Of a stretch of 64,000 bases of DNA, positions 26,335 through 58,300 are shown piece after piece. Position 1 is the stretch's first letter; every line of letters begins with the position of its first letter. Below the pieces are notes generated by a model. It ran no database searches and had not been told where the DNA came from. It worked only from the letters and a program-made list of their open reading frames with translations. A program made the translations under genes and the position numbers. Location: contig NW_004955448.1 in assembly GCF_000276665.1 (NCBI RefSeq), positions 902,903 to 966,902 on the forward strand, in the 5' to 3' direction. The DNA is from Chinchilla lanigera (lineage: Eukaryota; Chordata; Mammalia; Rodentia; Chinchillidae).

Positions 26335-26349
26335 TCTGTAAACTTTTTT

Positions 26350-27316
26350 TTAATAATAAACATAGATCCATTTATGAAATAGGATAGGAACAATACAAAC
26401 ATTACAGAGTTATGGATAGATTAGTAGGAAAATATCAATGACTGCTGTAATATATGGTGGTATCTTCAAAGTGGTTTTTCAGGAAGACAGAGATACGCAA
26501 GAAGGATCTAACAAGTAGTTACAGCTGAAGGGTTGTCAAAAATCAAGTGAGCCATCTGGGTGAAAGCCATTTTTTGTAGCGTTTTCTCTCCAGCCTCCCA
26601 TCCCATTGGGACCCCACAACCGGTTAGTGTCCTCTCCCCAACTGTCAGCACAGGCAGCAGGAATCCTGCTGCAGACTTCTCCAGAGCTCCACCACAGCCT
26701 GTACTGTCAGGGGAAGAATGGCTTCCAATGAGTCTCTGCAGGTATTGTGCAAGGTCCTCCTGGTTTACAGCTTCCGAGCGGCTCTCGTGACCCCAGTCCA
26801 CTGGACCTCTGACTCTGTGGGCTTAGTCTGCATTCTCATGTTCTCTGAGTCCTTGTTCAGCAGCTGCTCCTCCGCTGGCTCTCGACCTTTCTGGTTCTCA
26901 ATGACAGGAGCAAGAGTGGCCCGTTGTATGGCATGTATTCCCAGGGGTTGTTCAAAGTTTGAATGATTCACACACATCTGTGGGTGGGCAACTGCAGTTG
27001 GTGCATGGTGGTCCAATTGTGTCACTGTTTCTCTGTGTCATGATAGATCTCAATTGAGTGGTGGCGGCCGGCCTAAGGGCCGGCGCACAACATTGCTCCC
27101 CTCCACATGGCTCCCCATGCGCTGGGGGCCCTCTCTCCGGGAGCCTAAGAGGCAGGAAGCTAGCCAGCCGGAAGACGGGCGCTCCCTGCCCGTGGCTCCC
27201 TGTGCGCCGGAAGCCCTCCTTCAGGGAGCCTACGAGGCCGGGAGTGAGCCGCAGGTCCAAAGACCGGCGCTCCCCGCCCGAGGCTCCCTGTGCACCCGGG
27301 ACCCTCCCTCTGGGAG
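26350..27316 (-). mobile_element. composite VNTR-ERV retrotransposon, copy A
   Basis: On the minus strand it starts with about 2.5 GC-rich units of about 86 bp (27065-27316), continues with about 540 bp of ERV-derived sequence, then a short AT-rich 3' part ending in A8. Perfect 15-bp target-site duplications (TCTGTAAACTTTTTT) lie at 26335-26349 and 27317-27331. There are no LTRs. The poly(A) tail and TSD length are what LINE-1 machinery leaves. The 3' end stops at a TTTATTATT point that is internal in copies B and C, which suggests alternative polyadenylation. Confidence 0.8.
27065..27316 (-). repeat. VNTR of copy A (about 2.5 units)
   Basis: On the minus strand the order is a CTCACTCCCGG-type unit, a GGCTGGCTAGC-type unit and a partial unit, the same two unit types as in copy B. 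The partial unit continues into a GGCCGGC palindrome before the ERV block. Confidence 0.8.
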
Positions 27317-27439
27317 TCTGTAAACTTTTTTGTTAGATGTATGAAAAAGTATAAAGTGAAAAGTAAAAATTCTGGCTAGCTTCCCTATTTCCATCCTTGA
27401 AGAAACTCTGTTAACTGTTTTTTATGTATACTAGAAATT

Positions 27440-27884
27440 TACTGCCCACTTCTGTTACAGTCTGTATCCAGATGTCACCCCAAAGCCTTATGGGAGTATA
27501 GGAAGTGGCTGGATTTAGGGTTTGTGATGCTGGGATCAAGGATGTGATGCTAGGATCAATTCATGGTGCAAACCTAGGACTAAATCTGCCCCACCCTGAG
27601 TGGGAGTGCTACCCACCCTAAGGGTAGCCTGGATAGGATATAAGGGACAGAGAGAGTGTTGTTTATCGCTTGTCGCTTATTGCTTGCTGCCTTGCTGCTT
27701 TGTGTCTTCCGCTACCACGAACTGTTCCTCCTCTGTGATTCCCCTCTGCCATGCCACCCTGCCTTGGAGCCAGCCAACTATGGACTGAAACCTCTACACA
27801 CTGTGAATCAAATAAACCGTTTCTCCTTTAACTTTGGGTGTCCAGTATTTTGTCTCAGCAACAAGAAAAGTAACTAAGACAACT
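27440..27884 (+). mobile_element. MaLR-like solo LTR
   Basis: It contains CAAATAAACC near 27813 as a polyadenylation region and ends in AAAAGTAACTAAGACA. The 5' end is slightly truncated, since it lacks the TGTTATGGTTTG start seen at 43756. Confidence 0.65.
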
Positions 27885-28129
27885 TCAAACATATATGCTG
27901 GACATTAATATTTCTTTATCTTGATAGGCTGAGGATTCATGGTCTTGGAGATTATTAAAAAGGTACAGTTCTTTTACTTTCATCCTACACATGGTGCAAT
28001 AGCAAATTCACATCTGGCTTCTGGGACTGAACCTCTGAACAGATACCTTCATTCACCTCAAGACTGGCTTCTCAACTAGAAGTTGCAACTTTTCTCTCAT
28101 ACCACTTGTCTCCTATGTGCGTGCAGTTT

Positions 28130-28222
28130 TTTTTTGTGTGCTTGTGTGCTAGGGTTTGAATGCAGGGCCTTGCACACGTGAAGCTCACACTCTACCATGG
28201 AGCTATACCCCTAGCCCTCAAC
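28130..28222 (-). repeat. old ID SINE
   Basis: TAGGGTTTGAATGCAGGGCC to GCTATACCCCTAGCCC. Confidence 0.75.
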
Positions 28223-28224
28223 CT

Positions 28225-29050
28225 CTTTTCTTAATTTCTCAGCATGACTGGAGAAATTGCAACTTTTATATGATTTTACTGAAGGTTCAGAGATAAAGGA
28301 TGGAAACTACAACACAAAACACAACTTATAATTCTTCATAGATGTGGCTTCTGTCAGAATGCTCAAGCCAGACCCTGGACTCTCTCTGCCCAACTCCCAG
28401 GCAGAAACAGTGTGGCAGGGCCTGGCCTCCTTCCCACTTGCAGGTGTCCCTTGGGCCTACTTGTCCTAAGGGGAGTCCAGAAACTCAAATTCCTATAGTC
28501 CATGAGAGAAAGACATTGTCTTACCTTCAATCAGTGTCCACCATGGCTGTCCATTTCCAAACGGAAATGTCCACTTCCTGATGGATGCATTTTAGTTTTT
28601 CATCCAGAAAAGTGTGACTTTGACCCGAACAGTAGGATTCAGCACTTTTTTCATAGTCTGGGCTCTTCAGTCCTAGAACAGGGGCCTCCTTGTTCTGCGG
28701 CAGTAAGGGTCTTCTGTGGCTCACCACAGGTCACACCCAGCCACATTAGGTCAGTTTTGATGGCTCAAGGTGGGATTCTGGCCTGTACACCTTTCTCTGA
28801 GTCTTCTGACTGACGTTTTACTCCCTATAAACAATCTCTTAAAGGCAAGCACACATCACATGCCTGCAGGAGTAAGTGACACTGTACTGTGAGGGACAAT
28901 GCAGACTACTCCCGTACCTGATGAAGACAGATTACTATAAGAGAACTGTAATCTGAAGAACTGTAAGTCTTCTAACTACGGTTATCATTTTCATATTGCG
29001 TCAGAATAAGTTCACTCTTCAACTCAAAAATCTCTAGCTCAGAAATGACA
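28225..29050. other. no recognisable gene or repeat
   Basis: A 103-codon frame at 28502-28813 and its 79-codon neighbour resemble no family. Probably unique non-coding. Confidence 0.45.
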
Positions 29051-29052
29051 TC

Positions 29053-29205
29053 TAGCCAGGCATGGTGGCGCATGCCTGCAATCCTAGCACTTGAGAGGCT
29101 GAGGCAGGAGGATCGCTGTGAGTTCAAGGGCAGCCCAGATTACAAAGTGAGCTCAAAGCCAGCCTGAACTGCATAGTGAGATGCTGTCTCAAAAAAGAAG
29201 AATGA
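29053..29205 (+). repeat. B1 SINE
   Basis: AGCCAGGCATGGTGGCGCAT to ATGCTGTCTCAAAAAAG. Confidence 0.92.
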
Positions 29206-29241
29206 AATGATGTCTGAAATTTGATTCAAAATTACAAAAAA

Positions 29242-29334
29242 GGGCCACCAGTCGGGACCCCCTCCTATCTCTCAGGTGCTATTCCTATTCCTTATCCTAT
29301 TCCTCATTCCTTTTCCCAATACATTTTCCTACTA
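29242..29334 (+). repeat. short polyadenylated retrosequence, copy 1
   Basis: About 90 bp start GTCGGGACCCCCTCC and end CATTTTCCTACTATT before an A-run. AAAATTACAAAAAA flanks it on both sides, a probable target-site duplication. It is similar to the copy at 59938. It is not B1 or ID. The GGGACCCC and CAATAAATTTTCC pattern recalls an LTR R region. Confidence 0.55.
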
Positions 29335-29570
29335 TTAAAAAAAAATTACAAAAAAACCAAACAGACAATAGCACAAAACTTTCCTTTCAATGGACTCAGA
29401 GAAACTAGTAGCATAAATGAAATGAACTATATGTATTAAAATACTTTTTAAGCAGCAGAGTAGGTAATTTAAGAAATTATTTTAACTTCTCCTTACATCC
29501 TATTTACCTATCTTCTATTTTGCTCTTGAACTATTTGAAGATAATGATACACAGTGTCTTATTCTCTCTC

Positions 29571-29722
29571 TCTTTTTTTTGTCTTTTTGAGACAGGGTCT
29601 CACTATGCAGTTCAGGCTGGCCTTGAACTCACTTTTAGCCCAGGCTGGTCTCAAACTCACAACAATCCTCTTGCCTCAGCTTTCCCAAGTGCTGGGATTA
29701 CAGGCATGTGCCATCACTCCCG
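29571..29722 (-). repeat. B1 SINE
   Basis: GTCTTTTTGAGACAGGGTC to GCCATCACTCCCGG. Confidence 0.92.
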
Positions 29723-30045
29723 GTATTCTCTTATTATTTTGTTACAAAATTTTATTTTAATTTCACATAAAAGGTAAAGAAAAGAGTGGGATACAGAGCA
29801 AAGTGAGTGGGGGTTTTGATAGAACAAAATTAGCCACAAGCTGATTGTTTCTGAAGTTATGTGATGGGTACCCAAGAGTTCATTATACTACCCTTGTGTA
29901 AGTTTGAAATCTACAGTTAAAAACAAAACAACTCCAATTCTGCAAAGGCTTTACCATTGATGCTTGCGTCACTAGAAGATTATTCAATATACATTTCCAG
30001 GATAATGGAACTTGTAGCCTTGCAGGTGAACTCAATCTCTATTTT

Positions 30046-30141
30046 TCTTTCCTTCCTTCTTTCCTTCCTTCCTTCCTTCCTCTTCCTTCCTTCCTTCCTT
30101 CCTTCCTTCCTTCCTTCCTTCCTTCCTTCCTTCCTTCCTTC
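30046..30141. repeat. (CTTC)n microsatellite
   Basis: CTTC repeats with a single interruption near 30080, located where the A-rich tail of a minus-strand SINE would be. Confidence 0.95.
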
Positions 30142-30350
30142 TTGGTGGCACTAGAGACTGAACCCAAGGCTTCCTCACTGAGTGTTCTCTTTCTCTCTTT
30201 TTCTCTCTAGCTTTTCTTTTCTTGCTTGCTTGCTTTTTTCCCTTTCTTTCTTTGTATCTTGAGGCACAGTCTTGCTAAATTGCCCAGGCTGGGCTCAAAC
30301 TTGTAAGTTTCCTGGTTCAGCCTCCCAGAGTGCGCCACCCACCCAGCTCA
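30142..30350 (-). repeat. B1-dID composite SINE
   Basis: CACTAGAGACTGAACCCAAG (ID), a TTCTC-rich linker, then TAAATTGCCCAGGCTGGGC (B1). Confidence 0.65.
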
Positions 30351-30591
30351 GCTTCTACCTCTTGCAAAGTAAGTTTCTTCCCTCCCTTCATAGATGATTG
30401 TAGAGATTTTGGGGGTGAATACTGACTCAAAGTCTCATTCTATCTACCAAGCTCTTCTTTACAAGTATTTTCTTTAAGAGAACTTCTTCTGTCAGCCCTA
30501 GGGTGAACACTACTGAAGGCGCTTCACTATTTCTATGGATATGCACCATCTTGCCAGGTACATGTGTGTAGGATTTACACACTGCATTTGT

Positions 30592-30691
30592 ATTTTTTTT
30601 TTTTTTTTTTTTGGTACCGGATATTGAACTCAGGACCTTGGGCTTGCCAGGCAGGTGATTATGCCACTGAGCTATATCCCCGACTCCTTGC
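30592..30691 (-). repeat. ID SINE with target duplication
   Basis: TGCATTTGTA flanks it. GGTACCGGATATTGAACTC body. Confidence 0.9.
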
Positions 30692-30811
30692 ATTTGTAGA
30701 TTGTAAAAGAAATTCTACCTGTGTTACTTTATGCCTCTTTTTAAAATGGATTTTACTAGTGCAGGTTGATGCAAAGGAGTCTGGTGAAGGTAGACTGAAG
30801 GGTGGCTGATC

Positions 30812-31192
30812 ACAGGAGTCTCGGTTACTTTTCTCTCATTGTTGAGACAAAAATACCTGATGCCCAGAATCAAGGAAGGAAAGCTTTACTCAGCTCACAG
30901 TGTGTGGGTTTTTCAGTCCATACTCAGCTGGCTCCAAGGCAGGGTGGCCCACTGCAGACAGCAACAGTTCATAGTGGCAGAAGAGAGCAAAAACAGCAGG
31001 AGCGGAAAAGGAGGAGCAGCAGGGAGCAAAAGCCTCTCTCCCTCCCTTGTATCGGATGCAGGCTGCCCGCCTCAGGGCGGGTGCAGCGCTCACACCCATA
31101 ATCCCAGCATTGGATCATGGATCAGTCACAAACTCTAGGACGCCATGAGTGCACGAGGCTTTGGGGGACACCCAGCCACAAACCGTGACACC
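30812..31192 (-). mobile_element. MaLR-like solo LTR
   Basis: On the plus strand it runs from GTCTCGGTTACTTTTCTCTC through TTTACTCAGCTCACAGTG to the AACCGTGACACC end. Internal CpG-rich text near 31070 resembles a B1 start. Confidence 0.6.
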
Positions 31193-31900
31193 AGGACAGG
31201 ACAGCATCCCCAGTCTTAGGACGGTTTATGTGGGAGCCTTTGTTCTGGAATGTGGTATTCAGCTGTGTTAACTCAGAAACTTAAATGCTGGCACACAGAG
31301 ACACCAAGAAACTGTAAGGGCTGATGAACGCCAGTTAAATAGCTTGCAAGGAGAAGCATAACTAGAAGCAGGCCCCAGATCCGTGTTTGCTGGTTAGCAC
31401 ATTCTCTGTCTATGGGAAACTTTTATGTAAAGCCAGATTATAATCAGAAGGGTATTTTGTGAGAGAAAGCTCTCAAACAATGAATTTCCAACTAGAGAGA
31501 GTTGCTATCCACTGGGGGATAGGTAGAGAGAGGAGGCTTTTAGGGAATTTGCGTGTGTGTGGTTTCTTTCCTTCTTTTTCCTTTTAGCATATGTAACTGG
31601 AAAAGGCATAGCCTATATTATAATAAGATGATTTTGTTTTTGAAAATGTAAATCCTATTGCTTTCATGATTAAAATAATAAAAAAGTCAAGCTTAACACA
31701 ATCCTGCTAGTGACTCTTCAGGGAGAGTAGGAATATGCAAATCAGACTCTCTGGAGGGCCTAAGGTTTTTTTTTCCTTTCAAAATAAGACACAAAGACAT
31801 TGTTTAATGAGACACTGAACAAAAGCCATACATGATGCAACTAACACTGGCATGGCCCATATTAACTTCCCTGTTTTAAAGTTCTTTCTTGCAGCTGTCA
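31193..31900. other. no recognisable gene or repeat
   Basis: AT-rich sequence of no evident family. Confidence 0.45.
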
Positions 31901-31903
31901 TGG

Positions 31904-32060
31904 CCAGAGGTGGTGGTGCATGCCTGTAATCCCAGCACTTGGGAGGCAGGGGCAGGAGGAGCGCCATGAGTTCAAGGTCAGCTTCGGCTACACAGTGAAT
32001 TCATGGCCAGCATGCACTGCATAGTGACAGCCTGTCTAAAACCATCCCCCAAAACAAAAA
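31904..32060 (+). repeat. B1 SINE
   Basis: GGCCAGAGGTGGTGGTGCAT to CAGCCTGTCTAAAACCATCC. Confidence 0.88.
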
Positions 32061-32364
32061 AGTTCTCTCTCACAAAACAATGTTGTGATCAATGTAATCA
32101 TATATTTATTATTGTTACTAACTGTGGGAACTGATGGAGTATATCCAGGTCACTTATATAAAGTATTATGTATTTTACAACATGTAGTATAGTATTATAA
32201 CTAGCACTATAGTTTTGTGACCAAATTCTGCAGCTAGCCCAAACCAATATGCAGGTAAGCAGACATTTAAGGAAAAAAATCAATGGATTTTTCTCCCTTC
32301 TTCCTTTCTGAAAGACTCTGTTTTTATTGCAGGTTGCTGTGCTCTCTGAGAAGAGGACTCTATT

Positions 32365-32367
<3 letters not shown>

Positions 32368-32404
<37 letters not shown>

Positions 32405-32482
32405 CTCCAGTACTGGGAACCGAACTCACGACCTTGCGCTTGTCAGGCAGGCGCTTTGCCGCTGAGTTAAATCCCCAGCCCC
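32368..32482 (-). repeat. ID SINE with perfect 15-bp target duplication
   Basis: GAGGACTCTATTCCT at 32353-32367 and 32483-32497. Tail of about 35 T, so a recent insertion. Confidence 0.95.
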
Positions 32483-32817
32483 GAGGACTCTATTCCTGTT
32501 CCAGCATAGTCTAACTTCTTGAACTCAAGAATTGGTTTGTGACCGAAACCAGTTCAAAGCAAGTCTGAGGTGTTATTCTGACAATAAGATGAAAACCGGC
32601 TGTCTTTCCAGATCCCCTGAACACTCTCTTTGGTTATTAGACGGGCCTAAGTGAAAAGGTCAGCGTCAGCAGAGACAGGCCAGAGGAACAGAAGGGTTCA
32701 GAGTTTTGGAGGCCATATGGAGGCCACTGGATCAAGATTGCTTGAAACCAACACTACTTTGGGCTTGACTGTTATTTCTTCCAAAAAAAAATATTTCTCA
32801 TTGTTTCAGCCTCATTT

Positions 32818-32905
32818 ATTTATTTTTTTGATGCTGGGAATGGAACTGAGGACCTTGCACTTGCCAGGCAGGCACATGTGCCACTGAGCTATATCCCCGG
32901 CCCCA
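32818..32905 (-). repeat. ID SINE
   Basis: GATGCTGGGAATGGAACTGA to ATATCCCCGGCCCC. TCAGCCTC flanks it. Confidence 0.9.
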
Positions 32906-32954
32906 TCAGCCTCTTCTAGTTATACTGGAAGCACTAGTGGGCAAATCAGGGTAC

Positions 32955-33815: not shown

Positions 33816-33816
33816 G

Positions 33817-33976
33817 ATTTTTTTTTTTTTGTCTTTTTGAGACAGGGTCTCGCTATGCAGTTCAGGCTGGACTTGAGCTTACTTTGTAGCCCAGGCTGGT
33901 CTCGAACTCGCAATGATCCTCCTGCCTCAGCCTCCTGAGTCCTGGGATTACAGGCATGCACCACTACGCACAGCTT
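33817..33976 (-). repeat. B1 SINE
   Basis: Inserted at the edge of the L1 ORF2 fragment. Head CACCACTACGCACAGC. Confidence 0.92.
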
Positions 33977-35637: not shown

Positions 35638-35795
35638 GCCGGGTGTGGTGGCGTAGGCCTGTAATCCCAGCACTCGGGAGGCTGGGGCAGGAGGATCACT
35701 GCGAGTTTGAGACACTTAGGCTACAAAGTGAGCTCAAGGACAGCCTGAACTGCATAGTGAGACCCTGTCTCACCAAAACAAAACAAAAAAAAGAG
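35638..35795 (+). repeat. B1 SINE abutting composite copy B
   Basis: GCCGGGTGTGGTGGCGTAGG to CTCACCAAAACAAAAC. Its A-rich tail is the apparent insertion site of the VNTR element, or it is the element's own 5' module. Confidence 0.9.
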
Positions 35796-35801
35796 TTCGT
35801 G

Positions 35802-36265
35802 GGCTCCCGGAAGGAGGGCTTCCGGCACACAGGGAGCCATGGGCGGGGAGCGCCGGTCTTCTGGCTGGCTAGCTTCCTGCCTCGTAGGCTCCCGGAGGGA
35901 GGGTCCCGAGCACATGGGGAGCCTCGGGCAGGGAGCACCGGTCTTCAGACCGCGGCTCACTCCCGGCCTCCTATGCCCCTGGAAAGAGGGCTTCCGGCGC
36001 ACAGGGAGCCACGGGTGGGGAGCGCCAGTCTTCCGGCTGGCTAGCTTCCTGCCTTGTAGGCTCCCGGAGTGAGGGCCCCCAGCGCACAGGGAGCCTCGGG
36101 TGGCTCATTCCCGGCCTCCTAGATCCCCCGGAGGGAGGGTTTCCGGTGCACAGGGAGCCACGGGCGGGGAGCGCCCGTCTTCTGGCTGGCTAGCTTCCTG
36201 CCTCGTAGGCTCCCGGAGGGAGGGTCCCGGGTGCATGGGGAGCCATGCGGCGGCGAGCGCTCAAT
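35802..36265 (+). repeat. VNTR of about 86-bp units with two alternating types
   Basis: Units start at 35802, 35887, 35974, 36059, 36122 and 36208. Odd units end in GGCTGGCTAGCTTCCTGCCT; units 2 and 4 end in CTCACTCCCGGCCTCCTA. Unit 4 carries an internal deletion (63 bp) and unit 6 is partial. The alternation amounts to a dimeric higher-order repeat. It is highly GC- and CpG-rich. Confidence 0.85.
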
Positions 36266-37275
36266 TGAGATCTATCATGACACAGAGAAACAGTGACACA
36301 ATTGGACCACCATGCACCGACTGCAGTTGCCCACCCACGGATGTGTGCGAATCATTCAAACTTTGAACAACCCCTGGGAATACATGCCATACAACGGGCC
36401 ACTCTTGCTCCTGCCATTGAGAACTGGAAAGGTCCAGAGTCAGCGGAGGAGCAGCTGCTGAACAAGGACTCAGAGAACATGAGAATGCAGACTAAGCCCA
36501 TGGAGTCAGAGGTCCAGTGGACTGGGGTCACGAGAGCCACTCAGAAGCTGTAAACCAGGAGGACCTTGCACAATACCTGCAGAGACTCCCTGGAAGCCAT
36601 TCTTGCCCTGGCAGTACAGGCTGTGGTGGAGCTCTGGAGAAGTCTGCAGCAGGATTCCTGCTGCCTGTGCTGACAGTTGGGGAGAGGACACTAACTGGTT
36701 GTGGGGTCCCAATGGGATGGGAGGCTGGAGAGAAAACGCTACAAAAAATGGCTTTCACCCAGATGGCTCACTTGATTTTTGACAACCCTTCAGCTGTAAC
36801 TACTTGTTAGATCCTTCTTGCGTATCTCTGTCTTCCTGAAAAACCACTTTGAAGATACCACCATATATTACAGCAGTCATTGATATTTTCCTACTAATCT
36901 ATCCATAACTCTGTAATGTTTGTATTGTTCCTATCCTATTTCATAAATGGATCCATGTTTATTATTATGTTTCCTACAACAACCATTGAGAATTATTGAA
37001 TGATTATTCAGTAGGTCACTCATGTATAGTTCTATTTATATTCTTTAGAAGCCACTTTGAAGATACCTAAGTATAGTACAACAACTATTGATAATCTCTT
37101 ACCTCTTTTGTCTGTAACTCACTATCTTTTGTCTATTTGTTTTCCTGAGAAACTATCTTATAGATAACAATATGTAAAACAATAACCATTGATCATTTCC
37201 TACCACTCTGTCTGTAATTTGGTAAGCCCCTCCTATTATTATGTTATCCTTCTTTTACTCTTAAAAAAAAAAAAG
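35802..37275 (+). mobile_element. composite VNTR-ERV retrotransposon, copy B
   Basis: It has six VNTR units (35802-36265), an ERV-derived block (about 36266-36780), an AT-rich 3' domain (about 36781-37260) and a poly(A) run. A B1 SINE sits directly upstream and its A-rich tail abuts the first unit. The short AGAGTT shared by both ends may be part of a target-site duplication. The 97-residue open frame at 36517-36810 differs at only four positions from the equivalent frame in copy A, so the two copies are close relatives. Confidence 0.78.
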
Positions 37276-37276
37276 A

Positions 37277-38230
37277 AGAGTTTATAAACATGCAGAGAAG
37301 ATACAGAAGGCAAACAAAATGAACAATAATGTGTTAAAAGATAAATGTTCAGGTAAATGTTTTTTGCTTTGAATCAGCTCTCTAATCTCACCATGCAAGC
37401 TTATGACTGTGCAGTCACACTACATGCTTATTCTAAAATAATGCCTAGCTTTTGGATGCATGACAATTTGCAGAGCTATTAGAAAAATTCCGTTTTATGA
37501 AAGTATGCAAATTTATAAAAGTAATGTATTTGTACTGTTACACTTGGTAATATTTATGTAGCCCCTAACTCCAGCAGAGATTGAATTTACTGGACATGTG
37601 TTTCGTACCGTGCACAATCAAGGGGTAGCTGTGAGATCAGCACCTTAAAAAAAACAAGAACAGCAGCAGCTTTTCTTGAGGCTGAGGAAGAGCCCACTGA
37701 CTATCTCACAAGGCTGCCACAAAAACACTGTCAACCATTCACTCTGTAAGTCCTCAGGTTTTGGAGTCCCAGGGAACATGTGAACACTCTACCCTCCCAG
37801 GGGAGAGTGGAGGGCATGGTCCTTTGTCTGAGAGTCTCACTAAACTATATCCCACTGGGAAGAAATTCTTCTCCAGATGGAAGTTCGGGTACAGTGATCA
37901 AAACAGCGAGAATGATCAGTGAGAACAGCACCCTCCTATGCTAATGCCCCTAGTGAGAATTAATCATTCTCTATCTATGCAGAGCTCCTGTTTGTTGTAG
38001 CTCTTCATCTAACACACGGAGCTCATGTTGTTTATGCACCTTTCTGTCCTTGAGCAGCTCGAGCCCCAAAAGGCAATGGCTCCACAACTGCTACATTTGG
38101 CGAAGTGTCTAGCGGATCGCTCAGAACGGCTATTTCAAAATTAGTTTGGAAATATTCTGAAAAGTGAACCAAAGCAAAAGGTAATGTCCTTCTATTTCTT
38201 GTTATTATTTGTATATCTGCATTTGTGTGT
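37277..38230. other. no recognisable gene or repeat
   Basis: Mostly unique AT-rich sequence between composite copy B and a B1-dID. Confidence 0.45.
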
Positions 38231-43755: not shown

Positions 43756-44133
43756 GTTATGGTTTGTGTCTGGAAGTGCCCCTCAAACCCTCATGCAGCT
43801 ATGGGGCGGGCTTCTACAGTTTATGGGTGTGAGTGCTACACTCACCCTGGGGCGAGTAGTTTGCATACGATGTAAGGGAGGGAAAGAGCCTTCCTCTCTG
43901 CCACCTCTCCCTTTTTGCTCTTGTGGCCTTTGCTGTCTTCCACTACCGTGAACAGCTGCCCTCTGCCCTCTACTCTTTTAGTTTATGGGTGTGAGTGCCA
44001 CACTCATTCTGCCTTGGAGCCAGCCGAGTAATGACTGAAACCTCCACAACTGTAAGCTAAGTAAACCTTTCCTTCCTCAATTCTGGCTATCAGGTATATT
44101 GTCTCGGCAATGAGAGAAAAGTAACCAAGACAC
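43756..44133 (+). mobile_element. MaLR-like solo LTR with both termini
   Basis: It starts TGTTATGGTTTGTGTCTGG and ends GTAACCAAGACA, so TG and CA termini are visible. A phrase (TTTATGGGTGTGAGTGC) occurs twice, near 43820 and 43982, which suggests a small internal duplication. Confidence 0.7.
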
Positions 44134-45763: not shown

Positions 45764-46121
45764 TTGAAAGTTTGCTCAAAAAGGAAGAAAATAATAAAGT
45801 AGCCAAAGTAGTACCAAAAACAGGATAGTCATTCATATATACATAAGATATGAACAGTATAGGTTCATTTCTAGCAAATTCAATCCTGTTCACATATTTA
45901 AAATACAAAGTACATTTCAATCTGTCAAGAAGCTGACCATATTGAACACCAGGAAAAAAACTGTACTTTAGCTTCAGATCATGTCTTCAATATCCTAGAA
46001 CAGTAAAAGATGGAATCTAGACACTTATCACCATCAATTAACAAAAAATTAACTTTGAAAAGTAATTCCTTATATTACCAATTCATACATGACTTAAAGG
46101 ATTAAACTCTTAAAGCGGGTA

Positions 46122-46319
46122 CTACTTGATGTTGCGGACCACTCTCCTACAGTGGTTTGTTTTCATCTCCTCCAATGCTTGCTCCAGTTGCTGAACTAAA
46201 TGAAGCAGGGTGGCTGGGTCTGTCTGCAGAACTTTGGTGCTGTGATCTCCATTGTGGTTGAGGTGCAGCTTGAAAGTCACTGCTGGTTTAATCTGCTGCC
46301 GGAGACTTCTGCTTGCAAG
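46122..46319 (-). CDS. COMMD2: COMMD2 coding exon 5 with stop codon
   Basis: It has 65 codons plus a TAG stop. It begins [20 protein letters not shown] and ends CRRVVRNIK, which is the bulk of the COMM domain with its leucine-rich strand-helix region. The acceptor reads AAAATCAAG and has a weak pyrimidine tract. The open frame continuing upstream of it is intron. Confidence 0.95.
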   Translation of the reverse strand, partial: LASRSLRQQIKPAVTFKLHLNHNGDHSTKVLQTDPATLLHLVQQLEQALEEMKTNHCRRVVRNIK

Positions 46320-49300
46320 CTTGATTTTAAATGGAATAAGAGCACAATAGTTACTTAATAACCATGTGGAATATATAATATTTACAATTACCTTGTAATA
46401 TACACAAAAATCATATTTAAGATGAATCACAGACTTCAAAATTAAAAGTAAACTTTAAAACCTTTGGAGAAAAAAATGAAAATACACATGAACCTTATGG
46501 TACAGAAAGATATATACCTTAAAAACTCTTATACTAGAAACTTATATGCACACACAAAAGGTACAAAGTATGAAGACAAAATTGATAAATCTGTCTTACT
46601 TTTCTCATTGCCGAGACAAAATACTTGACACCCAAAGTTAGAGGAGGAAAGTTTATTTTAGCTCATAGTTTGTAGAGGTTTCAGTCCATAGTTGGCTGGC
46701 TCCAAGGCAGGGTGAGATAACAGAGGAGCATAGCAGAGGAAAAACAGTCCATGGCTTGGCAGGGTAGGCAAAAGGCAGCAAAGCAAACAGCAAGCAGCTG
46801 CAGGCAGCCTTCTTTCTGTCCCTTATATCCTAGCCAGGGTACCTACCCAATAGTACTCCCAGGGCATCACATACCCTAGAACCAACCACCTGCAAAAAAC
46901 CCCACCTATGACTTCATGAGGCTTTGTGTGTGTCGGGGGGCATCTAGATTCAAACCCTTACACTAATTATGTTAACATTAATAACTTTTCTTCAAAGGAT
47001 ACCTTTGATGGTTATAAAACCTAGCCACAAATTGGGAAAAGATATCTTATAACAGGCATATGACTAAAAAGATTTAGTACTCAAAATGTATGATAAAATC
47101 CTCTGACATTGTAAGAAAAAAAACCATACCAAAACTCAAAAGAAAAAGGTACAGATCTAAACTAGTACAGTGGTACCTTAGTTGACAAACAATCTATTCC
47201 ATAATTCTGGAAAAGATGGCCACATCTTTTGTGTTTGTGCAGAAAGGATGGCCAAGGTTGTGTTTGTTATCTAATGTAAAGTTCCTAAACAAAAACAAAT
47301 TTTGCCAAATGCTTCTGTTTGTGAATCAAATGGCTTGCAAACAAAAGTGTTCATGAACCAAGGTATCACTGTACTTCACAAAAGACAAGTGGTCAAACAC
47401 AAAAATATGTTCAAATTTATTATATATATCATAAAAATGGCCAATAAGACCTCATGAAAGATCATTTTATACCTATCAAATATAAATAACAGGTTAATCT
47501 TGGGTTATAAATATGAAACAGTACTTATAAGGTTAAGTATCTAAGATCATTTGTATAGTACAACAATTACAGATATGCCAGATATGTAAAACATAATGCC
47601 TGAAAAAACTACATATTCATTCAATTATACCTGTTTATTTTTGCTTTTCTTCTATATTTGCATAGTCAGGGACTGAAATTATCTAGATATGTAATTAAAG
47701 TATGTTCCTGTTGAAAGACAAAGTCAAACTATCCTTCAATTTTTAGTCAATATGGTAATTAAGAACAATTACAGCTAACTATCTATATCATTCTTTAAAA
47801 TTTTAGAAATTATAGAACATTCTAGCAAAAATCTAACAGGATAGGATCAGACCTAATTTTCCTAATTAAGAGGCTGAATGACATTCAGTACTATAGGATA
47901 AAGAACAGTGCCCACATAGTTCTGGATATGGACTCTGGCAGGGAGGATAACAGGGACTGAACCCAGGTTCTCATGCAGACTAGGCAAATACTCCATCAAT
48001 GAGCTATATACCCAATCCTTTTAAAATATTATTTTGAGACAAGGTCTTGCTAGGTTGCCCAGGCTGTCTTCAAATTTTTGATCCTCCTGCCTCAGCCTCC
48101 TAAGTAGCTGGGATTATAGGTACGTACCACTATAATCTAAAGGATTCATTTTTTAACAGGGAAGAAATTCCACCCTCTTCCCTATAAACATAATAATAAC
48201 AGCAAAAGCTTTAAAACATGTGTAATGCAAGTTAGGGGAAAGATGTTTAGTCTGAAGGGCTATCGTATCTGGCAAAAATCATCAAGTAAGCCACAGGACA
48301 CATAAATTATGTTTTATTTAACTAATGTTCTTAAGAATTTTTTATTTTTTATTTTTTTTTGGTACCAGCAATCAAACTCATGACCTCATGCTTGCCAGGC
48401 AGGCACTTATGCCACTGAGCTATATTCCCAGCCCTAACTAATGTTCTTAAAAGAATTTAGCCTGCTATTAAGCCTCAGGATGATGTGTGAGCAGGAAAGG
48501 AAAACGATGCAGTTGTAAATGGACCAGCTCTAGAGGTAATATTCTTCTGCAACAGCCCCATATGGATTCAGTTTACACATATTATTAATAAGGCATCATG
48601 GGGCTGGGGACTTAGCTCAGTGGTACAGTGACTGCCTGGCAAGCATGGGGTCATGAGTTCGATTCCCAGTACCAAAAAACAACAACAACAACAACAAAAA
48701 TTATATTAATAAAGCATCATGATGCTGTAATGTGCTGATAATCTGTGAAGTCTGGAGAAATAGTCCTACAAGATGAATTACAGTGATTAGTTTGTTTTCC
48801 ATAAGCAACTGCACAATAATTAGAGTGTCCATTCACTACCAGTCTCCATGAGACAATTCAGTTTTTCAAAAATGAAAGATGGCATATCTTGTTACTATTT
48901 TCCTAGCCACTTAGCCGGTATTATATGACATGCCTTCTTCCCATAAATAGAAGAATCCACTCCAGTTAAAATCCCTTGTACTAGTTTCACCTAATGTGCT
49001 CAGGAACTCAACTAGCTCTGAGTAGTTTCTTTAGCCTTAAAATGCGCTTCACAGAAAAGTGGCACTAGTCATTCTGTATGACTTAACCTTAAACTATACT
49101 TGACATTGTATTAATACAGCAAACTCAATTCACTGGTAAATGAGCTGTTTTGCGTTTAATTTTTTTTTTTTTTTTTTTGGACCAGGAATCAAACTCAGGA
49201 CCTTGCACTTGCCAGGCAGCTGCTGTGCTGCTGAGCTATATCCTTGGCCCACTGAGTTTAATTTTAGAAAACTTAAGTTTCTTCTTTTTGGTCTCTTTGA

Positions 49301-52300
49301 GACAGGATCTCACTATGCAGTTCAGGCTGGCCTTGAGCTCACTTTGTAGCCCAGGCTGGTCTCGAACTCGCAACGATCCTCCTGGCTCAGCCTCCCGAAT
49401 GCTGGGATTACAGGTGTGAGCCACTATGCCCAGCAGAAAACTTAGTTTCTAACTTCTGAAACACTATTGGAGGCTGAGGAGAATCACAAGTTCAAGTCTA
49501 GTCTGAGCAACTTAGTGACTCAGAGAGATTGTTTCTTTTTTTTTTTTTTTGGTTTTTCTCCGGTACCAGGAACCGAACTCACGACCTTGCGCTTGCCAGG
49601 CAGGCGCTTTTGCCGCTGAGCTAAATCCCCAGCCCCAGAGAGAGATTCTGTTTCAAAAAAAGGGAGACAGGGAGGGGCTGGGATGTAGCTTAGTGTTCAG
49701 TCCCCAGCAATCCCCCCAAAAAAACCCCAAACTAAACCAAACTGAACAAAAAAGCTGTAGGTCCTTAAAGTCAGAGGACACCCCTCCACATGAGAGAGAT
49801 AATGATCTAGAAGGTAAATTATTGCTGAACCACATAAACATGATCATCCCTACATCTCTACCTGCTTATTATGAAAGGACCTAAATGTAAAGGGTTAACC
49901 ACAGTGATCTCCTTCCCATGACCCACACATGACCTGATGCTCAGGTTGCTCAGAACATCACCTATCTTGTTCTTTGCTGTACTCATAAGACTCAGCACAT
50001 GACAGATACACATCTATTCTATTGGGCACTGAATGCCTATCACATGCTGGGTACTATTTTGGGGACACAGCATCTGCGTACAGTCTGGTTTATACCATAT
50101 CTTATGTTCATGCCTATTCAAGTACTTATCAGGTCTGACTGCAATAGGTGATTTTTTTTGTTTGTTTGTTTTCTGGTACTGGGAATCGAACTCATGATCT
50201 TGCGCTTGCCAGGCAGGCACTGTGCCACTGAGCTAAATCCCCAGCCCTGGTGATTTTTAATTTAATTTGTTTTTAGCCTCCTTTTATCAGACTGTGATGA
50301 CTTACAGGCAAGTATGCTGTTTCCCCATTGCTGTGGGTATTAGCTGACTTTCTGTTACTGTGAAAAATGCCTAAGATAGCTAAAAGGAGGAAAGATTTAT
50401 CTGGCTTGCAGTTTCAGGTCTGAGTCTGTGACTGATTACCCCTGATGCTTTGGGCCAGAGGTAAAGTAGTACATCACTTGGCAGAGCAAAGCTGCTTAAC
50501 TCACGGCAACTGAGAAGCAAAAGAAAAAGACAGTAAGTGGCTCAGTCCTGTATCTCCTGAGGTGTATGCTGCTATGACCTCACTCTTTTCCACTGCCTCC
50601 AAGTTCCATCACCTTCCATGAGTGCTACAGGCTGCTGACTAAGCCCTTAATACACAGGTTTCTGGGGGACATTATTCAAACCAGAGCAGAGTTTTACAAG
50701 GTCTGTGATACTCCAAATTCAATAAATAGACAATATGGGTTAATTAATGCATTAATGCATACTGGAGCATAAAAGCGATCTTTTCTATGATGTTTATGTC
50801 AGTGGGATAACTTCTCTAAGCCAGTCACCCAATCTCAACTGTAAAATCAGAAGATCTAGTATGAAAGGTGCAGGTTTTTTTGAGACAGGCCAGCAAGCAG
50901 TTCAGGCCAGCCTTGAGCTCACTTTGTAGCACAGGCTGGTCTTGAACTTGCAATGATCCTCCTGCCTCAGCCTCCCAAGTGCTGGGATTACAGGTGTATG
51001 CCACCACATCCAGCAAGGTACAGCTTTTTCAAACCAAAGTGTAAGTCTTTTATCTTGTTAGTTCTGATACCCTTGATGATCCCATTTTAATATTTCTCTT
51101 ATTTTTAGTGACACTGTATAATGTTATTCTTTCCTGAAACCACACTTTATTTTATTTATTTATTTATTTATTTATTTTTCCCCCGGTACCGGGAATCAAA
51201 CTCACGACCTTATGCTTGCCAGGCAGGCGCTGTACCACTGAGCTAAATCCCCAGCCCCTCCGTAGTCACTTTAACTGGAGTATCCAATGAGATTTGGTTC
51301 AACCAATCACCAGAGAAATCACTCTTATTTGTAATTTGAACTAACCTTACACTCAAGTTCTAGGAGACTGCAGACTAAATAAGTTGTTATCACTGTGAAT
51401 TCAATATATCTTGAACTGATAAATGCCATGTGGGAGTGTGGCTCCAGGGCTGCTTGAATTTCTAATTTTTCAAGAGTTGCTATAAACTATAGTTTTGGTG
51501 TAAAAGCTACCATTTTTTAAAAATAGTGGAAGGAGTGAGGAGACTGGCATGTTTTCAAGGTGGAAAATGATTTGCAGATGGATTAAATGAAGGGTAAAGA
51601 AATGAGTCAAGAACAATTCCAAGTATTTTGGTCTTAAATAAATCAAAGAACAGACATCACCTATGGACAGGAGGGGACATTATGGAAAGAGCAGTTTCAG
51701 GAAAAGAGGGTGAGGAAAGCAGAAGTCAGTTTTGAATATACAGTAGAACTGTGGCTTGTGAGTACGATTTGTTGTGGAAACACGCTTGTAATCCAAAGCA
51801 CTTGTATATCAAAGTGAATTTCCCCACAAGAAATAATGGAAATTCAGACGATTCATTCCACAACTCAAAAACATTCACGTAAAAATGATTACAATACTGT
51901 AATATAATACAAAGTAACAAAGAAAATACAAAATATAAAGAAAAATAGATTAACCTCCACTTATCTTTGAAAACCTTTGTGGCTCATGTGAAAGAGACAA
52001 GAGAGGAGAGGTATCATGTAGGATGATGTAGTCAGAGTTTGCAAGGGAACAGATTTAACACAGGGCACATAACTTCTAGGATTATTTTATAATATTCACC
52101 CAAAAAGTCAAATGAAGAGAGTTCAAGAGATCTGTCCATGCACTAGAGACCCAGCGAACCCAGCTGAGGGCCTGGATCCCACTGCAATGTCCTGCACAAG
52201 TCCAGCTGAAGACCTAGAGCCCATGGCAGTGTCTTCCAGAAGTTTAGCTGCAGGCCTAGAGACCACAACCCTGTCTCATGTACGTCTGTATCAAGGCCCA

Positions 52301-55300
52301 AAGATCAGTGGTGAAGCTAGAAAGTCTGTGCCAGAGGCATGAAGGATCTGCCTTATAGCCAGGAAGTGACGCTCAAGGTAAAGACCAGAGCTCCTCCAGA
52401 GAACTGCAGCCCTCCTCAGTGACAGCGAGGACCCAGGCTCTTCCAACGATGAGAACAGGTGAACTCACACTAGAAGAGCCACAGTGACAAGCTTCTCCAG
52501 GAGAATCAACAGCACACCATCTTCCCCTCTATTTCTCCTTTTATGCTGTTGGCAACAATCCTCAGGTGGGCCTTCCACACCCAGAACCATGCTGACTCCG
52601 TTCAGCTGGTGTACAAGTTGGCCAATAGTTAATTCAGGACAGGTGACTTTCACCATCACTAACAGAATCACTGCTATCTACTGGCTCAATGGAATCTTTT
52701 ACTTTTTGTGCAGCTTTACCAAGGAACCTATCCAATGACACCTGCTTTTGTTTTTTTTGAGAATTTCATGGAAGTATGATATTGCATTGTCATTAAACAG
52801 ATTCATTGCTCCCACTGCCACAGCCTTACTCAGTGCTCTTCTACAAAATTTTGCACGTTTCCCACATTTTAAACGTCTCCCTAATCTCATTTGAAGTGAG
52901 GGGTACCCCTATCTTTTTCTCTTTCTCCTCTGTAGACAAGATCTCCTCCATAACTTCCTGCTGTTGCTTGCAATGCAGACCCAGCAGTTTATTGGTAGCC
53001 AGCTCCTAGCTCTGTTCCTCTACCACTCTTGAATGCCATTTTCATTCACCTCCAGTCCCTTGGTCTTCCCTAAGAACACAATTTCATCAACAATTGGCAG
53101 CTCTCATGATCTCCATCTAAGTCATGTCCAAGAACACACTCAGGCCACAGTTTTCTCTCAGCAGAATTGAGGGTTCTCTTGATGACCCCGTTTCAGGCTT
53201 TACTGATGCGGCAGTTCATGATATGGAAATGATTTTTCCAAAACTCTCGGGAGGGTAGTGTGTCCCTTTGGTTACCTCGAAGCCTCACTAAAACAGTGTT
53301 TTAGTGTAAAGTTTTTTAAAGTTTGAAATGACCTGCTGATCCATGGGTGGGGGAATTAGAGTGGGGCTTGGAGCAAAGAACTTGACCTTAATGAGCTTGG
53401 ATTCCTCCAGTAAGTTGTCTGCAAAGCTTGGAGGATGAGCAGGAACATTATCTGTAATCAGCAGGGCTCTGAGTGGCACATTCCTATCTAAATGGTGTTC
53501 CTTCAATGCAGGACCACAGACCTCACTGATCCACTCAATGAATAGAGTGAGATGATAAGCCTTGCTGGTGGAACCCCACATATGTTTCATTGGCTCTTTT
53601 TTTTTTTTTTTTTTTGAGTTTTAAAAGTTAAGAACATTTATTAGCATGCAGATATCAACACAGCCATACTACTTGTCCATCTTCTTGGCGAAGTTCAGCT
53701 CCTTTTCTTTTTTGGGTTATCTGACAAGCAACTTGCATGACACAGGGCATAAATAATACAGATATACAGTAATGTAGCAGCAGAATGCAGTACCAGTGTA
53801 TCTGCAAAATATGCCTAGTTGATTTACATGCATCGAATACCTGTCATTTCACCAATGCAAAAATAATTTCTAATAATTTGGGTAAGTAGCGACAGAGACA
53901 GTTGAAGTTAGGAACAACTATATTTGAAAGGCTTTTGGACAGACTTTGAAATGTTGACTCTGCTTTTGCAGATAAAAGCTAAAGCACAGCTGGCCATGGT
54001 GGCACTTGTCTGTAATACCAGCACAGGAGGATAGAAAGTTCAAGTCCACCCTGTGCATAGTAGGGATTTAGTGATACTATGCGTCAAAATAAAAATACAA
54101 ATGGGCTGGAGATGTTACTCATGTGAAGACTCTGGGTTCAATCCCAAATACTGCAAGGGAGAAATACAAAGCTAATTTGTACATGTACATCACAATGCTT
54201 GTGCTGACTTACTCCGTGTAAAATATATGCAACATCCACACTAAAACATTAATATGGTTCTTCAAAAACACCTTGCATAGCCCAAGGGACATTATCTCAC
54301 CTAACAAAATTATTAGTTTATTAATGTCATGTAGTGCTTAATCCATATTTAAATTTCTCCCATTGTTTCTTTGCAGGTCTATCTGACCCAAGATTCAATC
54401 AAAATATGTTTTGTTAAATCCTGGAGTATGTACCCATTTTTTGGATTTTTGAGACAGGTTTTCACTATGTAGTCCAGGCTATCCTGAACCCGTGGTGATC
54501 CTGTCTCACCCTCCCGAGTGCTGGGACCACAGGTATGTGCCACCACGCCAGGCTTCTTTTCCATTCTTGAAAAGTGCCTTTTAAAATGACTTTCTGATTT
54601 GCTGAACTCCTCCTAGTTGTCTTGTTCAATGTCTCATGCGGTGTGATCCCTTTCTTGTGGTCACCTTGCATTTCTTTTTTTTTTTTGAGACAAGGTCTCA
54701 CTATGCAGTTTAGGCTGGTCTTGAACTCACTTATGTAGCCCAGGCTGGCCTCAAACTCACAAAGATCCTCCTGCCTCAGCCTCCCGAGTGCTGGGATTAC
54801 AGGCGTGTGCCACTGCACCCAGCTCACCTTGCATTTCTTGAAGGCTTGTGGATTCTTGGAATGATACACAAGCAGGGGTTTGACTTTGAAGTCCCCACTT
54901 ACATTAGCACAAAACAAGAGGTAACATGCTCTCTCATGGGCTTGTTATTGGGCATTGCATTCTCTTCTTCTGTAAGGTAGTTCTCTTTGGCAACTTTTTC
55001 AAAATAAAATCCCCATCTCACTGCAGTTAAAAACTTGCTCTGGCAGGTAATTCTCAGAAACTATGAGCTTCTGGAACTCAGCAGCTCCTGTCACAACTCT
55101 ATGGAAGCCACTTCTCCTCTTAAAGTTAGCAACCCATCCCCTACTTGCCTTAGAACCCCCTTCATTTCCTATTGATGTACTTGGCAGTTTATTTACGAGA
55201 TCAGCGTACAAGGCCTTTGCCTTCACACAGATAAAGTTCTTGGTCACAGTAAGGCAGCAGAGGAAAGAGTCTACCTCTGCAGGCAGCCTGACCTAGAATG

Positions 55301-58300
55301 AAGCAAAGCATCCCTAAACTTACCCTTGTATGGAAAAGCAAAGGATGGTCAACAGGTGCCTTGAAGTGACAAAAAATACAATAGGGCAATTGTAGGCACC
55401 TTCCACTGTTCTGAAAAATCACTGATTTCAATCAAATACTGTGCCTATGACTAAGCATTTGAGCACTGAAGCCAATCACCCACAATCCCGCAGCAGAAAA
55501 GAGAACCACTGGCTCCATGTGACATTCAGCATCACATACGACTCATATTGCAAGACATCATTTGTTTAACAAGTCGTAATATATTAAGGATGCTTGCTCA
55601 CCTTGTGGAACACTCAGAACAAGTTAGTCACAATCCACAGTTTTGCTATATTGCATCTGAATACCTATCCAACACCCATGTGGAGATGTCAAACAGGCTT
55701 CAACTGTATGGCAGCTGAGGAACAGATCTAGGCTAAAGATATAAATTTGGGAATCCCAACTATACAGGGAGCATTTAAAGTCATAAATTAGATGTCCCAA
55801 GGGGAACAAAAAGGTACGAAGATTGCAAACTGACTGTTTAAAGGTTGATGAGACAATCAGCAAAGGAGACTGAGAAGAGGGCAGATGAGGCTGAGAGCCA
55901 CAATTTCAAGTAGTAAAGAGTGAGTAACTGCGATGAGTACTGCTATGGCATGAAGACTAAAAGGCAATGGCCTTGATTAATTTATGACTGTAGAGTAGTA
56001 AAAGTGAAGCTTAACCAGTGTGGACTCAAGAGAGAAAAAACAGCAAGACTAAGCCCGAAGAGTCAGAGGTCTGGTGGATTGGCGTCATGAGAGCCATTTG
56101 GAAGCTGTAAACCAGGAGGACCTTGTGCCATACCTGGGGAGACTCCCTGGAAGCCATTCTTCCCCTGACAGCACAGGCTGCGGTGGAGGAGCGCGTGGAG
56201 CTCCGGAGAGGTCTGCACTGAGATTCCTGCTGCCTGTGATGATGGTTGGGGAGAGGACACTAACTTGTTATGGGGTCCCAATGCGATGGGACGCCGGAGA
56301 GAAAAAGCTACAAAGAATGGCTTTCACCCCAGATGGCTCACTTGAGATGTAAGAACTGCCTCCTCAGTATTCCATAGCTGTGACAAGGAGGAGGCCAAGG
56401 AGAGAAAACAAAGAGACTGAGAAATAGCAGCTGCTTTTGCTGCAGCACTAAGAGAAACAGACCCTAAGTCTGATTCTCGGGGCCCCAAGAAGAACTCGAC
56501 AACTGCATTCATCTGCTACCACTGTTAAAAGCAGGCCACCTCAAGAGGAACTGCCCCAAGAGGCCCCCTGGGCCATGCCCTGAATGCATAGGTGACCACT
56601 GGAGATAGGTCTGCCCTCTGAAGAGGAGGCTCCAGAGCTCAGACCCATCTTACCAGGTAGTCTAACAGGAATGAGGGGGCCCGGGGCATACTCTGCCTTC
56701 TCCCTCTGGCCAGACTGTCATCTCCATGGAGGAGCCCTGGGTAATCATGACTATGGAGGAACAAGAAAATAGCCTGTTGCTAGACACAGGTGCAAGTCTC
56801 TTGGTCCTTCTTTTCAATCCTGGCCTTCCTTCCAGCCGTCACACCTCAATGACAGGAGTCACTGGTAGGAGGTAATATGCTATTTTTGACAACCCTTAGG
56901 CTGCAACTTGTTAGATCCTTCTTGCATATCTCTGTCTTCCTGAGAAACCACTTTGAAGATACCACCATGTATTATAGCAGCCATTGATATTTTCCTACTA
57001 ATCTGTGCATAACTCTGTAATGTTTGTATTGCTTCTATCCTATTTCATAAATGGATCCATGTTTATTATTATGTGTTTCCTACAACAACCATTGAGAATT
57101 ATTGAATGATTATTCACTAGATCACTCATGTATAGCTCTATTTATTTTCTTTAGAAGCCACTTTGAAGATACCAAAGTCTAGTACAACAACTATTGATAA
57201 TCTCCTACCTCTTTTGTCTGTACCTCACTATTATTTGTCTATTTGTTTTCCTGAGAAACTATCTTATAGATAACAATATGTAAAACAATAACCACTGATA
57301 AGTTCCTACCACTTTGTCTGTAATTTGGTAAGCCCCCCCCTTATTACTGCTATCCTTCTTTTACTCTTTAAAATAAAAAAAGAAAAAAAATAAATACTGA
57401 AAAAAAGAGAGAACAAACAAGAAGAATGTAAAGATAGACAACACCTTCAAGTTTTGATGTAAAGGGAATGGCAGTAAGGGGATATATGGACTCAAGACTG
57501 GGTTCCTGACGATTAGGACATATGAGGCAGAAAACAGAGGGAGTAATTGTTGGAACTATGTCCTCATGTGGGCAAATGGGGATGAGTTATGGTGTATACA
57601 GGAAGAGGCTGTTTATATGCAAGAGCATGGGCCCGGCATCAATAATAACAGGAGTGAAAGCACAGCAAGACAGGGTTTCACATGTAGTTCAGGCCAGCCT
57701 TGAACTCACTATGTTGCCCAGGCTCGTCTTGAACTCACAGTGATCCTCCTGTCTCAGGCTCCTGAGTGCTGGGATTATAGGCATGCACCATCACACCCAA
57801 TTCAACAAGTGGAGGTTAATACAGGCAGGACGGCAGATGTGGTAGGAGAAATGGGTGAGAGTTTTTTCTGATTTCCTTGCTTTTCTTAGTCAAACAGGAA
57901 GCAAAGTCAACGGCTAAGAGTGTGTGGTGTCGATGGGGCTTGGAGGCTTTGGAGAAAGAATATACAAGGCATGCATGACCCTTGCTATCCCAGAGTTTAC
58001 AGCTAACTGTGGGACATGGGTATGTTTGAGCAAAATGACTTTGGAAAAGAAGAAACACAGGTGCCACAAAAAAGAAACCAGACTACCAAGACTTAATTAT
58101 AGTTGAACAGCAGCACAGGGAATTTCTGCCAGAGAGGCATCACTTAAAGCAGATGTCAACAAATTTGTTTTTCTTTTTCTGTGAAGAGCCAAATAACATG
58201 TATTTTAGGCTTTGCAGATCATAAAGTTGCTAGCACAACTACTTAACTCTGTCCTTATACTTTGGAATCAGCCACAGATAGTATATAAATAAATAAGCAT

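What the first reader, a model, noticed from the sequence alone, without database searches (positions are those of the whole stretch)
26335..57419. SVA-like composite retrotransposon family (VNTR + ERV-derived block + AT-rich 3' domain + poly(A)) in a rodent
Three insertions (A 26350-27316, B about 35802-37275, C 56043-57404) share one architecture: no LTRs, a GC-rich VNTR at the 5' side in A and B, an ERV-derived centre, an AT-rich 3' domain and an A tail. Copies A and C have clear 15-bp target-site duplications. That is the logic of hominoid SVA/LAVA elements (non-autonomous, L1-mobilised, VNTR plus ERV piece). I know of no such VNTR composite described in rodents, but I cannot search. The sequence shows the structure and duplications; mobilisation by L1 and novelty are inference.
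Basis: partly seen in the sequence, partly recalled or inferred. Interest (0 to 1): 0.88.

Follow-up and report, generated by a model that had tools for sequence, protein, structure and literature searches.

The report
Rodent SVA-like composite jumping gene
This rodent-like genome carries a family of jumping DNA stitched together from tandem repeats, a piece of a host gene, in some copies a bit of old retrovirus, and the tail of a LINE-1 element; it resembles the SVA elements of apes but seems to have arisen independently.

Summary
The finding holds, with its domains partly renamed. A (26350-27316, minus), B (about 35798-37274) and C (56043-57404) are non-LTR insertions of one family with target-site duplications (TSDs).

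The centre shared by all three is mainly not ERV: it is an internally deleted piece of the host gene RIOX1 (NO66), confirmed against the RIOX1 gene in the same genome. The AT-rich 3' domain is an L1 3' UTR. A gag-pro piece is clear only in C.

The family is genome-wide: all 40 scored matches are 95-100% identical, out of 3372 first-look candidates. Of 26 further copies examined, 23 had a full 3' end the script could read; 20 of those 23 carry TSDs of 12-21 bp. Five older copies keep more RIOX1 and the gag-pro block; C and L029 are intermediate; the short form (A, B, the 26) lacks gag-pro and differs by 3.2% between copies.

It works like SVA, LAVA and PVA (L1-mobilised VNTR composites) but is not one of them: no CT-hexamer/Alu-like 5' end was found and its VNTR unit is about 85-88 bp. 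Such composites are described as hominoid-specific, so an independent origin is likely. Whether Dfam or Repbase already lists it is untested.

The parts
26335..26349 (.). TSD of copy A (TCTGTAAACTTTTTT)
27317..27331 (.). second TSD copy of A, identical 15 bp
26350..27316 (-). copy A, short form, early 3' end
27060..27316 (-). A: VNTR (about 2.5 units) and GC-rich spacer
26586..27059 (-). A: RIOX1-derived block; its 5'-most part is assigned by position only
26543..26585 (-). A: short remnant next to the gag-pro junction (gag end, inferred)
   Evidence: no Pfam or PDB support
26350..26542 (-). A: part of the L1 3' UTR domain
35785..35797 (.). TSD of copy B, in the A tail of a B1-like SINE
37270..37282 (.). 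second TSD copy of B, one mismatch, overlapping the A tail
35798..37274 (+). copy B, short form
35798..36262 (+). B: VNTR, about 5.5 units of mostly 85-87 bp, two alternating types
36263..36732 (+). B: RIOX1-derived block (gene segments 411-480, 516-554, 1497-1552, 1753-1824)
36733..36775 (+). B: short remnant next to the gag-pro junction (gag end, inferred)
36776..37264 (+). B: L1 3' UTR domain with three diverged units of about 100 bp
56028..56042 (.). TSD of copy C
57405..57419 (.). second TSD copy of C, one mismatch
56043..57404 (+). copy C, intermediate long form, 5'-truncated, no VNTR
56046..56301 (+). C: RIOX1-derived block
56302..56881 (+). C: gag-pro fragment (nucleocapsid-like then protease-like, same frame), broken
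   Evidence: block present in 5 of 5 ancestral copies
56882..57404 (+). C: L1 3' UTR domain and A-rich tail
21625..22204 (-). 5'-truncated L1-like insertion with a 17-bp TSD whose 3' end matches the composite's; interrupted by 100 N

Best explanation
A, B and C belong to a non-autonomous composite retroposon family moved by the host's L1. Its order is: GC-rich repeat domain (VNTR in the young forms), a defective piece of the host gene RIOX1, a gag-pro fragment (in older forms), an L1 3' UTR, an A tail. Shown here: the parts and their order, spread through the genome, L1-type TSDs, 5' truncation, A tails, and a series of forms from a long ancestral one, through C and L029, to a short one without gag-pro that is abundant and young. 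Inferred: transcripts that end in the L1-like 3' end are copied in trans by L1 proteins through target-primed reverse transcription; the VNTR holds or replaces the promoter; the L1-derived 3' end helps capture by L1 and polyadenylation; the chimera first arose when RIOX1-derived, ERV and L1 sequence came to lie in one transcript, or by template switching.
For: TSDs in A, B, C and in 20 of 23 readable further copies, 16 of those 20 starting with A. Order VNTR-RIOX1-remnant-3' domain in 26 of 26 copies. Host RIOX1 gene found, and its DNA matches A and B in four blocks and C in two, E from 0.004 to 3e-18, above codon-shuffled controls for the blocks of 31 bits or more. L1-like tails followed by the same UTR repeat in 7 of 11 matches, one of them the probe's own source. 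A 3' inversion of twin-priming type in L004. Ancestral L031-L035 and intermediate L029.
Against: No experiment; the L1 source is inferred. ORF2 pieces were not recognised by Pfam or PDB, so the name L1 rests on recalled protein motifs. Gag-pro matches are weak (E 0.0044 and 0.16) and Pfam found none. Three of 23 copies fell below the TSD control and one of four ancestral copies did too. The origin of the VNTR is unknown; its genome search did not complete. Start points show no fixed phase in the VNTR unit.
Confidence: 0.88

Rival explanations
1. The VNTR is the tandem 5' UTR of the host's own L1. The element would be an L1 derivative whose coding part was replaced by RIOX1 and gag-pro sequence, rather than an SVA-like composite with a separately acquired VNTR.
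For: The 3' end is an L1 3' UTR. Mouse L1 5' UTRs are tandem monomers (PMC9022269, abstract start seen in the listing). The VNTR is the 5' end of the copies seen.
Against: Five ancestral copies have a GC-rich 5' domain without clear match to the young VNTR, so the VNTR looks later than the fusion. No full-length L1 of this host was seen.
Confidence: 0.15
2. A standard LTR retrotransposon or ERV with a VNTR in its 5' part, seen as LTR-less fragments.
For: A gag-pro fragment in C, L029 and L031-L035.
Against: No LTR pair; TSDs of 12-21 bp; A tails; RIOX1 and L1 parts.
Confidence: 0.02
3. Processed pseudogenes shed by one chimeric RIOX1-type source locus, not a family whose copies become new sources.
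For: The 3' end and A tail also fit L1-made pseudogenes; one busy locus could give many similar copies.
Against: Three structural generations with shared later losses and turnover of the 5' domain point to changing sources over a long time. The copies end in L1 sequence, not in the RIOX1 3' end (no match to residues 546-641).
Confidence: 0.1

Closest known systems
SVA (SINE-R-VNTR-Alu)
   Same: Non-LTR, non-autonomous, VNTR, retroviral piece in some forms, A tail, L1-type TSDs
   Different: No CT-hexamer/Alu-like 5' end found; VNTR terminal, unit 85-88 bp instead of 30-50 bp; RIOX1 piece; 3' end from L1, not HERV-K
[quoted passage not shown]
   Same: VNTR composite with L1-derived sequence in its 3' part (PMC4432496, Background)
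   Different: No Alu parts; here the 3' UTR of the host's own L1 type with three units, plus RIOX1 and gag-pro
PVA (PTGR2-VNTR-Alu, gibbon)
   Same: A host gene piece captured next to a VNTR (PTGR2 exon 4 there, RIOX1 here)
   Different: Different gene; no Alu-like 5' end; ERV and L1 parts added
L1 chimeric insertions with mRNA fragments (PMC13174262; abstract and passages seen)
   Same: L1 sequence joined to mRNA-derived sequence
   Different: Here the chimera is a dispersed family with structural subfamilies; how that paper's cases compare was not read in full

Membership tests
Hominoid VNTR composites (SVA/LAVA/PVA/FVA) | CT-hexamer/Alu-like 5' region | tested here: not met
   26 of 26 copies begin in the VNTR; in 600 nt upstream of these, 45 pairwise matches exist but only one pair lies next to the element. 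A longer form beyond those seen is not excluded.
Hominoid VNTR composites (SVA/LAVA/PVA/FVA) | Central GC-rich VNTR of 30-50 bp units | tested here: not met
   GC-rich (71%) VNTR is present, but unit about 85-88 bp and 5'-terminal
Hominoid VNTR composites (SVA/LAVA/PVA/FVA) | Captured 3' part fused to the VNTR | tested here: met
   RIOX1, gag-pro (older forms) and L1 3' UTR
Hominoid VNTR composites (SVA/LAVA/PVA/FVA) | Mobilised by L1 in trans | not testable with these tools
   Only the insertion signature was tested and it fits
Hominoid VNTR composites (SVA/LAVA/PVA/FVA) | Hominoid host | tested here: inconclusive
L1-type retroposition products | TSDs of about 7-20 bp, A tail, 5' truncation | tested here: met
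   20 of 23 readable copies plus A, B, C; C 5'-truncated; tails seen
LTR retrotransposon / ERV | LTRs and 4-6 bp TSDs | tested here: not met
Autonomous L1 | ORF1 and ORF2 | tested here: not met
   Longest stop-to-stop frame 152 aa in B (running in from the flank) and 99 aa in C; contents are RIOX1 and gag-pro
Processed pseudogene of RIOX1 | Copy ends in the gene's own 3' end | tested here: not met
   No match to RIOX1 residues 546-641 in A, B or C; the 3' end is L1-type

The most novel reading that the evidence does not exclude
VNTR composites arose a second time, outside hominoids, from a RIOX1 gene copy, an ERV piece and an L1 3' UTR; they spread better as internal sequence was lost and the 5' repeat domain was replaced, and the short form may still be moving.
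Probability: 0.6. Interest if true: 0.82.

Novelty: new variant of a known kind. Interest (0 to 1): 0.7.

Why it matters
VNTR composites are described as specific to hominoids (PMC4432496, abstract). An independent rodent family with the same logic lets one ask what such elements really need: this one seems to do without the CT-hexamer/Alu-like end that is the minimal active part of human SVA (PMC4432496, Background). Ancestral, intermediate and short forms in one genome show a composite being pared down while it spreads, and show a chromatin-enzyme gene, RIOX1, as raw material for a repeat family.

Tried and rejected
Fixed start phase: the first eight copies seemed to start at one phase of the VNTR unit. 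With 22 measurable copies of 26 this vanished (Rayleigh R 0.136, p about 0.67).

Splicing as the cause of the gag-pro loss: not supported; the junctions as read show no GT-AG pair.

Gag as the origin of the whole centre: suspected by eye, replaced by RIOX1. The stretch beside the gag-pro block still looks like a capsid end by eye, but Pfam and PDB did not support it.

N-terminal RIOX1 block: with the recalled human protein the match in A beat 300 shuffles only narrowly (32.0 against 30.8 bits) and that in B (27.7) did not. The host gene's own DNA then supported it (E 4e-8 to 6e-8). Two further 26.5-bit matches are within the shuffled range and are not counted.

No relatives were found in viral contigs, prokaryote genome contigs (19, 35) or the protein collection (32, 33, 65). 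Rfam gave no match at gathering score and one chance-level match. Pfam gave no retroviral or L1 family; PDB none for the L1 tail (29) nor for two of the centre's pieces (55, 66).

Copy number was not measured. In the 20 loci of 10 kb fetched around copies, one further composite was seen.

Full report
1. What is there. Copies A, B and C were read directly and compared. A lies on the minus strand. A and B begin with a GC-rich tandem array; C begins inside the centre. All share an AT-rich 3' domain. TSDs are 15 bp exact (A), 13 bp with one mismatch (B) and 15 bp with one mismatch (C); at those levels 0 of 400 random pairs of positions reached them. B's exact match (7 bp) was reached by 14 of 400 and its TSD is A-rich. 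About 7 kb around each copy hold no LTR pair.

2. The 3' domain is an L1 3' UTR. A fourth match in the window (21731-21830) lies in an insertion with a 17-bp TSD that starts like the end of L1 ORF2 (recalled motif) and ends like the composite. Two fetched loci show an ORF2-like C-terminus followed by a 3' UTR that matches the composite at 73-77%. A probe for the L1 tail, taken from L023, gave 11 matches in 285,860 bases. Seven of the 11, the probe's own source included, are followed within 300 bp by the same UTR repeat; six of them also match the composite's own 3' domain. The other four are short partial tails. The composite holds three diverged copies of a unit of about 100 bp. Pfam and PDB did not recognise the ORF2 pieces, so the name L1 rests on recalled motifs and on the insertion signature.

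3. The centre is RIOX1. A stop-free frame of C hit NO66 (RIOX1), a histone demethylase and histidyl hydroxylase, at E 5e-8 over 29 residues; a second segment hit it at E 0.028, and the matching frame of B at 0.17. Two other pieces of B gave nothing. The recalled human protein placed three collinear segments in A and in B and two in C. The own-genome search then found a RIOX1 gene: one open frame of 699 aa, 96% identical to the 216-aa query. Its DNA matches A and B in four blocks (about 411-480, 516-554, 1497-1552, 1753-1824 of the fetched strand) and C in two (1504-1595, 1753-1824), E from 0.004 to 3e-18. Sixty codon-shuffled genes gave at most 27.4 bits against 31.0-81.5 for these blocks. The first 100 bp or so of the centre, upstream of gene position 411, are assigned by position only.

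4. The retroviral piece. In C a nucleocapsid-like and a protease-like stretch with a DTGA motif follow each other in the same frame. The PDB matches are weak (E 0.16 and 0.0044; best hits are gammaretroviral) and Pfam found none, but order, frame and motif fit a gammaretrovirus-type gag-pro (inference). The block recurs in 5 of 5 ancestral copies at 83-86% and, with a stretch of N, in L029. These stretches were only observed.

5. The family. The window lies in a 2.37-Gb assembly. A 651-base query over the end of the VNTR, the RIOX1 block, the remnant and the start of the 3' domain gave 3372 first-look candidates, of which 40 were scored; all 40 were 95-100% identical. The RIOX1 query gave 2107 candidates, of which 150 were scored: the gene, and 149 partial matches of which five (L031-L035) were examined and are composites. 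Neither number is a copy count. I examined 26 of the 38 scored copies other than A and B (L003-L028). All 26 have VNTR, RIOX1 block, remnant and 3' domain in order. In 23 the script found the full 3' end. Twenty of the 23 have TSDs of 12-21 bp, with at most one mismatch, above the 95th percentile of 506 mismatched pairs; 16 of those 20 begin with A. L008, L018 and L023 were below it. Of the three not scored, L005 and L009 show TSDs by eye and L017 is unclear. L004 has an inverted 3' part. A and L005 end at the same early site, after a CATAAA (read by eye). In 600 nt upstream of the VNTR only one pair of flanks shares sequence next to the element.

6. Three generations. Ancestral copies L031-L035 have RIOX1 uninterrupted from about 1497 to 1824, a further 124-194 bp, the gag-pro block and the 3' domain at 81-89%. 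Four of them, read, have a GC-rich 5' domain with no clear match to the young VNTR; L035 has its own repeat of about 105 bp there. TSDs beat all 12 controls in 3 of 4; L035 did not, and L032 was left out because its 3' end reads N. C and L029 lack the RIOX1 stretch of about 1596-1752. A, B and the 26 also lack the 536 bp of gag-pro. Twenty-five short-form copies (300 pairs; L004 and L005 left out for their 3' ends) differ by 3.2% on average (1.5-5.1%), and C differs from them by 9.3%. At a recalled rate of 2-5 x 10^-9 per site per year the short form spread very roughly 3-8 million years ago (inference).

7. How it works. Long TSDs that mostly start with A, A tails, 5' truncation and a twin-priming-like inversion are the signature of L1 target-primed reverse transcription (established knowledge). 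The frames seen in A-C have no coding capacity of their own, so L1 would act in trans (inference). Whether the VNTR is a promoter is not shown; start points are spread over its unit.

8. Comparison and novelty. The SVA/LAVA/PVA/FVA group is described as specific to hominoids, with a shared CT-repeat/Alu-like 5' region, and the VNTR of SVA as 30-50 bp repeats (PMC4432496: abstract and Background read). That 5' region was not found here, so this is not filed as a member, though it works alike. Ten paper searches listed no paper that, by title or abstract start, describes a VNTR composite in a rodent or a RIOX1-derived repeat; the four papers that hold both words were not read. The library lacks most subscription papers, and Dfam and Repbase could not be searched. 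PMC13174262 (abstract and passages) treats L1 chimeras with mRNAs and calls SVA hominid-specific; RIOX1 and beaver do not occur in its text. Other papers were seen as listings only.

Noticed in passing
window about 46100-62030, minus strand: Exon-like stretches resembling COMMD2 (recalled protein), with a CpG-rich promoter region near 61200-62100; the three composites lie in or beyond its introns.
   Followed up: no
window 51750-55400 and 47170-47380: Sequences that look by eye like pogo/Tigger-type DNA transposon remnants, including a 42-bp tandem repeat at 52160-52266.
   Followed up: no
window 29215-29350 and 59925-60040: Two copies of another short 3'-end-like repeat (GGGACCCC...CCAATAAATTTTCCTACT...A tail), by eye; possibly a second retroposon 3' end.
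   Followed up: no
window 24390-24860, 27460-27880, 30820-31200, 43760-44130, 46590-46980: Several copies of a dispersed repeat with TATGGTTTG / GTAACTAAGACA-like ends, by eye, unidentified.
   Followed up: no
rc of L030, around 1593-1601 and 1732-1740: The RIOX1 stretch missing from C, L029 and the short form lies near a 9-bp direct repeat (AGACTTCAT) in the gene, which hints at slippage or template jumping.
   Followed up: partly
L009 1501-2015, L023 779-1301, L021 6767-7387: Host L1 3' UTRs carry one, or in L021 at least two, copies of the about 100-bp unit that the composites hold three times.
   Followed up: partly
window 21965-22064: 100 N inside an L1-like insertion, probably an assembly gap.
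   Followed up: no
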